DNA from: Loxodes magnus
Taxonomy: Eukaryota > Ciliophora > Karyorelictea > Loxodida > Loxodidae
NCBI GenBank assembly: GCA_946699065.1
Contig: CAMPDV010000061.1
Location: 744,001-808,000, forward strand
Reading direction: 5' to 3'
DNA: 64,000 nucleotides
Every line of letters begins with the position of its first letter. Positions within the stretch are counted from its first letter, which is position 1. The position numbers were made by a program, and so were the translations under genes. Under the pieces are notes generated by a model. It was not told the DNA's origin. It did no database searches and saw nothing but the letters and a program-made list of their open reading frames with translations. Positions 42,970 to 61,561 of the stretch are shown here, one piece after another.

Positions 42970-45081
42970 ATGAAAGGTTTTGAAATCGCTAATTCAAGGC
43001 TAACTAAAATCTAAGAGTTAGGATAAGGAACTTATGGTACTGTTTGATAGGGAGCATGGGACATTACAACTGATGTTGCCATTAAAGTTTTAAATAGGCT
43101 AGAACTAACTCCATCTGCTGTTGAAAATTTTAAGAAAGAGATAGAAATTATGTATAAATTAAATCATCCAAATATTGTTAAATGTTATGGTTATAGCTCT
43201 GATCCACTTAGCTTAGTAATGGAACTTATGAGCTAATCTCTTAATGTTTATCTTGCAAACTAAGAGAATATAATTCCCTGGGAAAGAAGAGTAAAAATTA
43301 GCTTAGATATAGTATCTGGACTAAAATTCATTCATGAAAGTAAATTAATGCATAGAGATTTAAAAGGGGCAAATGTACTTTTAGATGGATCATTCAGAGC
43401 GAAAATTACTGATTTTGGTCTTTCACGTTAAAATTAAGGATCAAGAACAGTTAACACTCATAAATCAACAGGAACTATAAGATGAATGGCTCCTGAGTTA
43501 ATGGAAAGAGAACCTTCTTTCAATTATTAATCTGACATATTCGCATTAGGTGTGACATTTTGGGAAATCGCTTCCAGAAAAATTCCATTTCCTGCATCAC
43601 ATGATGCATTTATAATTAGAACTATTTGTGATGGTTAAAGAGAATAAATACCTGAAGATTGTCCAGCATAATTTGCGGAAATTATAGAAGGATGTTGGAA
43701 ACAAAATTATAAATAAAGACTTACACTAGATCAAATTCAAGAAAAACTAGTAAACTTCTATTTGGATCTTAATCCTTAACATAAACCTCAAGTTTCTACA
43801 TTTCTTTAGCCAGAAAATGCAACTTATGTAAATTTTGTAGCAGAGAAAATTTGTTAAGATTAAATAGTTTCTATTAATGCAATTAAGACCAAAAATATAC
43901 CTTCATATAATTTTTAGAAAATTTCTACAATCCTTTAGCCAGAAAACGCAAGTTAAATTCCATTTGTTTAATAAAATGCAATAATTTTAATAAAACGATT
44001 TTAAAATGGAAAAAGAGAGTAAGTACCTGAGGATTGTTCTTAATTTTTAGATTAAATCTAATAAAGCTGAAAATAAAATCCTCAATTCTGATTTAAACTT
44101 GATCAAATACAGCAAAAAATTATTTAAATTTATTATAAAATTTATCCATCAGCACCAAGTTAAATTCCTTTGGAGATTTAGTCGCAAAATAAAAAAAATA
44201 TAAATTAACTATTTGAATATATATGTAGTATTTCAGAAGATAATTTTAATAAAGCTTAGATAAACTCCATTTCTTCTTAATTTTATTTTTAGAAACTTTA
44301 AAATACTAACTGTAAATCAGGAATTATAAAAACTTATAAAATCTCTAGTTAAGCATTTGAAGTAATGGACCTTGGATGATTCTTTTAAGAATAAATTAAC
44401 TGTGCTTAAGTCGAGCAAATTTAAGAAGAAACTCTCGTGTATTCTGGTGGGTTTAATAGATTTCAAGACAAGTTTTTATTGCAATACTAAGATTCGTAGG
44501 AAACATTTAAGATGAACAGTTAAAGACATTCACATAGGACTAATTTCAATAAAAAGGATAAAATATATATAATATCAGGTTCTCTTTTTTAAAGCTAAGC
44601 GTTTAATGATATTCCATGATGTGAAGTATTCAACTTACAAACTAAAACTTTTACTAGTATTAATAAAATTAATACTTCAGTTGAATATTTTGGCTGCGAT
44701 CAGTTTGATACAAATTTGTACGTCTTTGGAGGTCATAATAACCAAGAAGATCAGAATTAAGACAAAATTTAAATTTACGATTCTGTGCAAGACTAATGAA
44801 GTGATTTCAACAAAGTCCTACTGAGCAAAAGTACTACTACTGCAATCTTTATACCCTAGAAAAGCTATTTCTTAATTTATCGTAATGGAAGTTATGACAT
44901 TGATTAGATATTCGATAAGTAAACTGTGATTTAGAGAAAATCATAATATACTGGAGAAAATTAATTATATAATGATTATGCTCAGCCCATTTTAAGTGGA
45001 GAATAAGTTTACTAGTTCGACAATTAAAGCAACTTGCACATCTATAACATAAATAGTGAAGCATGGAATAGGATAGGTTGA
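42970..45081 (+). CDS. Protein kinase with C-terminal kelch-like repeats (K1)
   Basis: 703 residues, one exon. The kinase domain (about 10-260) is complete: glycine loop LGQGTYGTVW, VAIKVL lysine, helix-C Glu, HRDLKGANVLL, DFG in TDFGLS, and GTIRWMAPEL. The RWMAPE activation segment and overall sequence place it with tyrosine-kinase-like (TKL) Ser/Thr kinases. A tail follows with PEDCPAQFAEIIEGCWKQN and, unusually, a second diverged copy about 150 residues later (PEDCSQFLDQIQQSWKQN). The C-terminal 270 residues have kelch-type strands (LVYSGGFNRFQDKFLLQYQD, RHSHRTNFNKKDKIYIISGS, WCEVFNLQTKTFTSI, LYVFGGHNNQEDQNQDKIQI), a probable beta-propeller for substrate or scaffold binding. Several conserved Trp (RWMAPE, PWCEVF, QDQWSD) are TGA, and a TGA also ends the gene after WNRIG. 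Confidence 0.93.
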
Positions 45082-45261
45082 GGAGAATTATGAACTTAAA
45101 AATACTTATTAATTTCCAATTAAAAGTAAATTTTTTATATTTTTCTTAAATTTATTTAAAAGTTGATACCAATTAAAATATCTATTTCTTTTAAGTTCTA
45201 TTAAGTAAATAAACTACCTAGAAGAAATTTATAACAATTTACAGTAGTAATAAGAAATGAT
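45082..45261. other. K1 3' flank
   Basis: Identity with the K2 flank continues to about 45133 and then stops abruptly (end of the duplicated block). Confidence 0.7.
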
Positions 45262-45600
45262 AGAAAGAATCTTCTATCATGAGAATTTAAGAAAATAAAT
45301 AATGGCAAAATCAAATACAAAGCAGCTTTCTTTGATACTAAAAAGAAATTCATAGCAAGAACATTTAAATAAATATAATCTCTTAAACTTAGTTTAGAGA
45401 GAAACTTACATTAATTTGTTGCTAAATATGGTTTTAAGATTACATAATAAGCTGCAAGTATCAGTTTTATTAAAGCATTATTAAATTGAAATAATTTAAT
45501 CAAAAGCTTTTAAGATTGGATTCAAGTTCAACCATTTAAAAAAACAATTAATGCCAAATAATAAAAAATGAAACTATATAAATCTTAGTTAAATACAACT
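45262..45600 (+). CDS. Probable coding segment, unrecognised
   Basis: One plus-strand frame reads NDRKNLLSWEFKKINNGKIK, YKAAFFDTKKKFIARTFKQI, LSLERNLHQFVAKYGFKITQ and SFQDWIQVQPFKKTINAK. The composition is good and basic, possibly a DNA- or RNA-binding fold, but I cannot name the family or its ends. A second, weaker frame starts MAKSNTKQLSLILKR. Confidence 0.35.
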
Positions 45601-59622: not shown

Positions 59623-59803
59623 GGAAGTTTCCTTACTTTTCCTCAGGTGGCTAATTTAATAAACTTTCTGACTTTTATTTTAATAGTTTTGCTTCAAATT
59701 TCTTCTTCTTCAGTTATATAAATTTTATTTCTCAAAATTACTTAAAAATCAGAGTTTAACTATCATTTTGATATTCTCAAACAATTAAATTTAAATATTC
59801 GAT
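59623..59803. promoter_or_regulatory. Shared divergent promoter region, K3 / minus-strand gene
   Basis: At most 181 bp separate the two putative start codons, so both promoters must sit here or overlap the 5' ends. AT-rich; no specific motif can be named. Confidence 0.4.
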
Positions 59804-61561
59804 ATGGAAACCTCTTAATACATCATACCTATAGAACATATAACTAAAGAAGATTTTATAGGAAAAGGAAATTTTGGAGAAGTTTTCAAAGGAAAATAGA
59901 AGGAAACTTAAGTGGCTTTGAAGTATTTCTATATAGATTAGAAATCTTTAGATATATTAGAAATCTTCTAAAACGAAGTTAAAACAATGATAAACCTCAA
60001 CCACCCAAATATTGTTAGATTGTGGGGATATTGCCTTAATCCTTTCATTTTGGTAATGGAATTAATGGATTACTCTTTATTTGACCTGATAAAATATTAG
60101 GAAGAAGAGATACCTTGAAGTGTTAGGTATTAAATAAGTCTTGATATTGCTAATGGACTTGAATTTATGCACAGTAAGAACATAATTCACAGGGATTTAA
60201 AAAGTGGAAATGTGCTTTTGGATACATTAAATAGAGCTAAACTATCCGATTTCGGTTTTTCGACTGAATAAATATAGCTAAGTAAACAAGATTAAGCAAA
60301 TATAATAGGAACATTCAGATGAATGGCCCCTGAGCTCTTATAATAAAGCCCATGTAGCTTTTAATCAGATATATTCGCGTTAGGAGTAGTTTTCTGAGAA
60401 ATTGCTTCAAGAGAAATTCCTTTCAAAGATAAGAATGATAAAGAAGTGATGCAAGCAATTATGAAAGGCTAAAGAGAGTAGATTCCTCTGAATTGTCATC
60501 CAGACTATGCAGAATTAATTTAATCATGTTGGAACTAAAATCCTGCTGAAAGGAAAAACTTGAACGAAATAATATCTAAATTATAATAACTAAAAAACAA
60601 AGAATCTGAAAATGGACTTTAGCTAAAGAGATATTAAACAACTAAACCTTTTTAAAAGAATGATGAAAAAAGCTAATTTAGGTACATCACTTCTTTAACT
60701 TAATAATAAATTAGTAAAACTTAATTCTCTGGAAGGAAAGAAGAATAAGATAATAACATTTAATTAGTCTAACAAATTTCAACTATATGCTTTAACTCTA
60801 ATAGTAAAAAGACTTTTATGATTTCTTAATAAAATTTTATTGTTGAATAAGTGGAATAAGTTGAAAGTATCTAACTATGCTATACATAAATTGAACAAAT
60901 TAATGAAAATTACCTTGTGATTTCTGGTGGGATCATGCAAAACGAATAAAGATTTACACTTCCAAATGATTAATAAAAGGAATTTTAAATGATAGTTGGT
61001 AGACATTCACATAGAACTAGCTCTAACAATTAGAACAAGGTTTTTATAATTTCTGGGAATATTTAGTGCAATAGTATTTGAAAAGATGTGGTAGAATGTG
61101 AAGTTTTCGATATTATTTAGAAAAAATTTAGTCTTATAAAAGCTATCTAAAATCCTGCTGCTTTTTTTGGTTGTGGTCAAAAGGAGTAAGAGATTTATGT
61201 TTTTGGTGGATACAATAATAGGTTAAATACTTAATTCAATTAAATCCAAGTTTTCGATAATTAATAAAATTAGTGAAGAATTTGCTAGCCAACATTGACT
61301 TAAAAAAGTACATCTTCTTCTATCTTTATTCCAAACTTGGATAAATTTTTGATTTATAGAAACAGCGATGACTTTGAAACCTAGATTTTTGATTTTAAGA
61401 AAGTGGTTTAGCAAGGAGAAAAATATTAAGGTGGCAGTTTTTTCTACTACGACTACACTTAACCGATTTCAAGTTTGGACAAAGTATTTCAATATGACAG
61501 CAACAGTGAATTATTCAAATATGATATAAATTCTGTACAGTGGACAAAATTATCGAATTGA
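59804..61561 (+). CDS. Protein kinase with C-terminal kelch-like repeats (K3)
   Basis: 585 residues, one exon, from METSQYIIPIEHITKEDFIG. The kinase domain is complete: GKGNFGEVFKG, VALKYF lysine, HRDLKSGNVLLD, SDFGFSTE and GTFRWMAPEL, then FALGVVFWEIASREIPF and PLNCHPDYAELIQSCWNQN. The RWMAPE and HRDLKSGN motifs put it in the TKL group. The linker is Gln/Lys-rich. The C-terminus has kelch-type repeats matching K1 and K2 position for position: YLVISGGIMQNEQRFTL, GRHSHRTSSNNQNKVFIIS, VECEVFDIIQKKFSLI, EIYVFGGYNNRLNTQFN, KSTSSSIFIPNLDKFLIYRN. Trp by TGA at IPWSVRY, FRWMAPE, VFWEIA, SIWKDV and QNQWRI. Stop after VQWTKLSN. It is a diverged paralogue, older than the K1/K2 duplication. Confidence 0.93.

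What the first reader, a model, noticed from the sequence alone, without database searches (positions are those of the whole stretch)
42970..61561. TGA is both tryptophan and stop; TAA and TAG are glutamine
In K1, K2 and K3 the conserved Trp of RWMAPE is TGA, and kelch Trp (PWCEVF, QNQW) are TGA. The same genes, the vWA gene, the porin-like genes and the four-TM gene all stop being protein-like at a TGA. TAA/TAG fall on expected Gln positions throughout. This matches the karyorelict nuclear code (NCBI table 27) and implies that termination depends on context, such as closeness to the 3' end.
Basis: partly seen in the sequence, partly recalled or inferred. Interest (0 to 1): 0.85.

Follow-up and report, generated by a model that had tools for sequence, protein, structure and literature searches.

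The report
Ciliate code: UGA double meaning
These ciliate genes appear to use UGA both for the amino acid tryptophan and as their stop signal, and UAA and UAG for glutamine; the sequence bears this out, but it is already the published genetic code of this group of ciliates.

Summary
The window lies in a 705.7 Mb eukaryotic assembly whose size matches the published Loxodes magnus macronuclear assembly (706 Mbp); that paper already describes this code, NCBI table 27 (PMC11441545).

I tested the code with the three codons masked. In eight kinase-kelch paralogs (K1-K3 plus five from the same contig), TGA shares columns with TGG 9 times (0.58 expected; 0 of 2000 permutations), TAA with CAA/CAG 32 times (16.5; 0 of 2000), TAG 14 times (5.5; 1 of 2000). 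All eight end at TGA; their last 50 codons hold 9 TGG and no TGA, the rest 49 and 36. In a calpain, Trp is the commonest residue at 7 of 10 aligned TGA columns. In eRF1 the Gln of GGQ is TAA. A kinase test against mostly bacterial homologs did not discriminate.

One detail fails: the PWCEVF 'Trp' column is TAA in five of eight paralogs. The porin-like and four-TM labels were not confirmed. Termination by closeness to the 3' end fits but was not tested (no RNA data). Verdict: real, well supported, already known.

The parts
42970..45081 (+). K1, kinase-kelch gene; in-frame TGA at 43045, 43483, 44068, 44089, 44377, 44617, 44797; TGA stop at 45079-45081, further TGA at 45091
   Evidence: stop placed by the eight-paralog alignment
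54657..56393 (+). K2, close copy of K1; in-frame TGA at 54732, 55170, 55623, 55629, 55689, 55929, 56109; TGA stop at 56391-56393, further TGA at 56403
59804..61561 (+). K3, diverged paralog; in-frame TGA at 60116, 60320, 60395, 61079, 61274; TGA stop at 61559-61561
1..1301 (-). N-terminal part of a calpain gene; continues beyond the window's left end to a likely TGA stop in the flank (L021)
   Evidence: Peptidase_C2 5.6e-69; masked-codon test; end read
2079..3845 (-). vWA/Sec23-like gene with two in-frame TGA in the decoded stretch 2088-4085; fitting TGA stop at 2081-2079; N-terminus not defined
28023..28721 (-).
   Evidence: one search covered it only up to 28400
31097..31924 (-). Coding-like stretch with in-frame TGA, ending at TGA; family unconfirmed
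   Evidence: no Pfam match
32122..32958 (-).
   Evidence: no Pfam match
49154..51105 (+). Retroelement domains (Exo_endo_phos_2 about 49154-49438, RVT_1 about 50446-51105) that also hold in-frame TGA, for example 49280-49282

Best explanation
The window is nuclear DNA of a karyorelict ciliate, most likely Loxodes magnus, translated with NCBI table 27: UAA and UAG are Gln, and UGA is Trp inside genes and the stop at their ends. Shown here: the meaning of the three codons, TGA at gene ends, and absence of TGA from the last 50 codons of one gene family. Inferred from published work on karyorelicts and Condylostoma: tRNAs that read UAR as Gln and UGA as Trp compete with eRF1, which wins close to the poly(A) tail, so UGA is counter-selected shortly before the true stop. 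The species name is inferred from assembly size and retroelement content.
For: TGA/TGG 9 shared columns against 0.58 expected, TAA with CAA/CAG 32 against 16.5, TAG 14 against 5.5. Calpain: TGA scores Trp +36.1 bits, next best Phe -9.8. TGA ends 8 of 8 paralogs and 2 of 2 eRF1 copies. 0 TGA and 9 TGG in the last 50 codons against 36 and 49 elsewhere. Codon-blind 3' ends: 17 TGA of 360 codons against 1.02% inside genes; TAA and TAG not raised. eRF1: 9 of 19 TAA/TAG face Gln, among them Gln185 of GGQ. 27 of 28 paralog pairs have dN/dS 0.26-0.45, so the genes are under constraint. Tubulin: 110 of 150 scored matches hold in-frame TGA (hand count). Code published for Loxodes and Parduczia (passages).
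Against: The kinase test against 120 mostly bacterial homologs gives TGA Tyr 27.4 over Trp 25.9, and its 31 TAA sites score Lys first and Gln negative; the calpain's 3 TAG sites score Lys first. TAA also pairs above chance with Lys and Glu codons. K1-K2 dN/dS is 0.73. The low TAA count in the last 20 codons is shared by all Gln codons together. The one tRNA-Trp found has a full 5-bp stem, unlike the published report. No 18S, RNA or protein data.
Confidence: 0.96

Rival explanations
1. Condylostoma-type code (table 28): all three codons are both sense and stop.
For: UAA and UAG can be stops in C. magnum (passages of PMC4967479). TAA is low just before codon-blind gene ends.
Against: Defined gene ends are TGA: 8 of 8 paralogs and 2 of 2 eRF1 copies. 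TAA (16 of 360) and TAG (6 of 360) are not raised at 36 codon-blind ends, TGA is (17 of 360). Only a few genes have a defined end, so a minority of TAA or TAG stops is not excluded.
Confidence: 0.02
2. TGA is only a stop (table 6), and the genes with internal TGA are pseudogenes.
For: K1-K2 dN/dS is 0.73. The 24 best-scoring tubulin matches and eRF1 have no in-frame TGA.
Against: TGA falls on Trp columns, not at random. The other 27 paralog pairs have dN/dS 0.26-0.45. All eight paralogs keep one reading frame and one TGA end.
Confidence: 0.01
3. Another organism with a similar code: Amoebophrya ex Karlodinium (TAR Gln, TGA Trp), or a Blastocrithidia-like code with TAR as Glu.
For: [quoted passage not shown] TAA pairs with GAA/GAG above chance (43 against 27.1).
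Against: Assembly size and retroelement domains match L. magnus. eRF1 here keeps NIKS, whereas Amoebophrya has RIKS. By ratio, TAA pairs more strongly with CAA/CAG (1.9) than with GAA/GAG (1.6), and GGQ's Gln is TAA.
Confidence: 0.01

Closest known systems
Karyorelict nuclear code, NCBI table 27 (Loxodes magnus PMC11441545; Parduczia sp. PMC4967479; Seah et al. 2022, cited, not held)
   Same: UAA and UAG Gln; UGA Trp and the stop; UGA missing shortly before the stop (passages)
   Different: No difference found. UGA looks commoner here (36 of 4731 codons, about 0.8%, in one family) than the 0.12% given for Parduczia, but one gene family is not a genome average.
Condylostoma magnum code, NCBI table 28
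   Same: All three codons have sense meanings: Gln, Gln, Trp
   Different: There UAA and UAG also end genes; no such end was found among the gene ends defined here
Blastocrithidia nonstop code
   Same: UGA is Trp; one codon is both sense and stop (abstract)
   Different: There UAR is Glu and UAA is the stop
Amoebophrya sp. ex Karlodinium code
   Same: All three codons have sense meanings, with a tRNA-Trp(CCA) proposed to read UGA (passages)
   Different: Its eRF1 has RIKS; here NIKS

Membership tests
NCBI table 27 | UAA and UAG read as Gln | tested here: met
   32 and 14 columns shared with CAA/CAG against 16.5 and 5.5 expected; GGQ Gln is TAA. The kinase homolog test alone does not show it.
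NCBI table 27 | UGA read as Trp inside genes | tested here: met
   9 columns shared with TGG against 0.58 expected; calpain TGA Trp +36.1 bits
NCBI table 27 | UGA is the stop, and UAA and UAG are not | tested here: met
   8 of 8 paralogs, 2 of 2 eRF1 copies, and TGA alone raised at 36 codon-blind ends; few genes
NCBI table 27 | Coding UGA depleted before the stop | tested here: met
   0 TGA and 9 TGG in the last 50 codons against 36 and 49; p 0.012; one related family, so not independent genes
NCBI table 27 | Stop meaning set by closeness to the mRNA 3' end | not testable with these tools
   No poly(A) or ribosome data
NCBI table 27 | Organism is a karyorelict | tested here: inconclusive
   Assembly size matches L. 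magnus; the 18S searches did not complete
NCBI table 28 | UAA and UAG also end genes | tested here: not met
   Not raised at 36 codon-blind ends; no defined end uses them
[quoted passage not shown]
   The one copy found by one exact pattern has 5 bp; wider searches did not complete

The most novel reading that the evidence does not exclude
This ciliate reads UGA as Trp with an ordinary tRNA-Trp(CCA) that has a full 5-bp anticodon stem, so the sense meaning would rest on weakened release (eRF1 with E55A and Y125F relative to the reference chain) and distance to the 3' end, not on the shortened-stem tRNA reported for other species and for Loxodes. Support is one tRNA gene from one exact pattern.
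Probability: 0.06. Interest if true: 0.5.

Novelty: already known. Interest (0 to 1): 0.17.

Why it matters
It confirms, from DNA alone and without assuming the code, an ambiguous genetic code in which one codon is both an amino acid and the stop. The local family of eight kinase-kelch paralogs is a compact natural test set: UGA and UGG swap at internal Trp sites, while near the stop only UGG is seen. Gene callers set to other codes would cut these genes into pieces.

Tried and rejected
The kinase-only homolog test does not separate Trp from Tyr, and I did not rerun it with TKL-type homologs only. Pfam scans of 4601-7002 (minus), 9900-12802 (both strands), 19700-21502 (both), 26301-28402 (both), 30900-33202 (minus), 34900-36002 (plus) and 40000-42960 (both) gave no family above its cut-off. 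ARAGORN found no tRNA in the window or in 284 kb; Rfam found one tRNA-like match at 38617-38687. TGA as Cys was rejected (0 columns shared with TGT/TGC). Not completed: 18S, tRNA-Gln (no search was run), wider tRNA-Trp searches, and a genome-wide K1 search.
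Full report
Source. The window is G000:C61:744001-808000 of an assembly of 705,730,643 bases in 7,843 contigs. The published Loxodes magnus MAC assembly is 706 Mbp. That paper says that karyorelicts, Loxodes included, use table 27: the only stop, UGA, also encodes Trp if far enough upstream of the poly(A) tail; coding UGA and UAA are depleted for about 20 codons before the stop; 3' UTRs average 53 bp (passages of PMC11441545). The species name is my inference from size and from the abundant RVT_1 and Exo_endo_phos_2 domains reported there and seen here. The 18S searches did not complete.

Genes. K1, K2 and K3 are kinase-kelch genes. A calpain (Peptidase_C2, 5.6e-69) and a vWA/Sec23-like gene lie at the left end on the minus strand. 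The frames that I take to be the 'porin-like' and 'four-TM' genes end at TGA, but no family supports those names.

Test against other organisms. With TAA, TAG and TGA masked as X, the calpain was aligned to a profile of 120 homologs out of the 308 that one search found (327 of 383 codons aligned). Its ten aligned TGA sites give Trp +36.1 bits, next best Phe -9.8. Trp is the commonest residue in seven of the ten columns (35 of 87, 85 of 92, 120 of 120, 109 of 120, 106 of 120, 118 of 118, 115 of 119); the other three are mainly Phe/Tyr, Glu/Asp and Phe. Its 15 TAA sites give Gln first (15.6) and Lys second (12.6); its 3 TAG sites give Lys first. For the kinase domain, with 120 of 3316 homologs, mostly bacterial, 7 TGA sites score Tyr 27.4 and Trp 25.9; 31 TAA sites score Lys first (4.8) and Gln -15.0; 7 TAG sites score Gln best but negative. 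That part does not support the reading by itself.

Test within the genome. I took 284 kb of contig C61 around the window and searched it with the codon-blind kinase profile. Eight full kinase-kelch genes were aligned; two other kinase genes were left out, one cut by the end of the stretch and one of another kind. Up to their ends the eight hold 4,731 codons: 36 TGA, 58 TGG, 286 TAA, 84 TAG, 91 CAA, 22 CAG (the first ten codons of each stretch left out). With K2 dropped as a close copy of K1, in columns with at least six genes, TGA and TGG share 9 columns (0.58 expected; 0 of 2000 permutations reach it), TAA with CAA/CAG 32 (16.5; 0 of 2000), TAG with CAA/CAG 14 (5.5; 1 of 2000). Controls: TAA with TGG 5 (4.3), TGA with CAA/CAG 2 (2.1), TGA with TGT/TGC 0 (0.65), TGA with Arg codons 2 (1.5), TAA with TAT/TAC 17 (16.7). 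TAA is also above chance with AAA/AAG (58 against 36.4) and GAA/GAG (43 against 27.1), which I read as common replacements of Gln. The RWMAPE Trp and the Q(D/N)QW Trp are each TGA in six genes and TGG in two. The PWCEVF site is TGA in K1 and K2, GAA in K3 and TAA in the other five. dN/dS under table 27 is 0.26-0.45 in 27 of 28 pairs and 0.73 for K1-K2.

Stops. All eight genes have a TGA where conservation ends; K3's is one column later. The Trp five or six codons before it is TGG in eight of eight. In the last 50 codons there are 9 TGG and 0 TGA, elsewhere 49 and 36 (Fisher p 0.012); the genes are related, so this p is optimistic. TAA is low in the last 20 codons (2 of 160 against 284 of 4571, p 0.006), but so are all Gln codons together (4 of 160 against 479 of 4571, p 0.0003), so I do not read that as codon-specific. 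Six further TGA lie within the 20 codons after the eight stops. A codon-usage decoder that scores the three codons as zero marked 234 segments in 284 kb. Of 50 strong ones, 36 had an isolated 3' end: within five codons of it TGA makes 17 of 360 codons, against 1.02% inside and 1.41% in noncoding DNA; TAA (16 of 360; 5.8% inside) and TAG (6 of 360; 2.0% inside) are not raised. The decoder was started from genes of this window, so it is not fully independent, and the segments include mobile elements.

Machinery. The eRF1 family search gave three matches: two close eRF1 copies on C196 and a gene on C2 that I take for Pelota (label from memory). The eRF1 copy in L044 matches solved eRF1 chains over 427 residues (best 7.4e-159). 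Nine of its 19 aligned TAA/TAG codons face Gln, including Gln185 of GGQ, which is TAA; it has no in-frame TGA before the stop, and 4 TGG. Relative to the reference chain (human eRF1, species and numbering from memory), NIKS and GTS are kept, E55 is Ala and Y125 is Phe; that these positions bear on stop recognition is recalled. Both copies end in TGA with another TGA three codons on. One exact pattern of tRNA-Trp type had one match in the genome: a tRNA-Trp with anticodon CCA and a complete 5-bp anticodon stem. Two papers say that Loxodes has a 4-bp-stem tRNA-Trp(CCA), citing Swart et al. (passages of PMC13092985, and PMC12005148; the eLife work is not held). My search could have missed other copies, so this is no contradiction.

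Genome-wide, 150 of 216 candidate tubulin C-domain matches were scored and listed. By hand count 40 have no in-frame TGA, among them the 24 best-scoring, and 110 have one to three. The best-conserved copies thus avoid TGA and more diverged ones carry it; some of the latter may be decaying copies.

Verdict. The code is published: PMC11441545 (passages), PMC4967479 (passages), Seah et al. 2022 (cited in PMC11441545, not held).

Noticed in passing
about 42790-45125 and 54480-56440: K1 and K2 look like a segmental duplication that includes the 5' flank and the first bases after the stop; K1 also carries an inserted partial repeat of its kinase C-terminal part. Seen by eye.
   Followed up: partly
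G000:C61, 284 kb around the window: At least eight full kinase-kelch paralogs, on both strands, lie within 284 kb.
   Followed up: partly
46901-51600: A retroelement with Exo_endo_phos_2 and RVT_1 in different frames and with in-frame TGA in both coding stretches; such elements are reported as abundant in L. magnus.
   Followed up: partly
38617-38687: tRNA-like Rfam match (34.3 bits) that ARAGORN does not call.
   Followed up: no
G000:C64 and other contigs; L001-L020: tRNA-Lys(TTT) genes are highly repeated: the nine loci that I ran through ARAGORN all hold one, and the first look had 42,786 tRNA candidates.
   Followed up: no
L046:713-785 and 1488-1560: A tRNA-Met(CAT) and the tRNA-Trp(CCA) lie near each other and have almost the same acceptor, D and T arms.
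   Followed up: no
G000:C64:600-935 kb and C237: The 24 best-scoring tubulin C-domain matches all lie on two contigs, C64 and C237.
   Followed up: no
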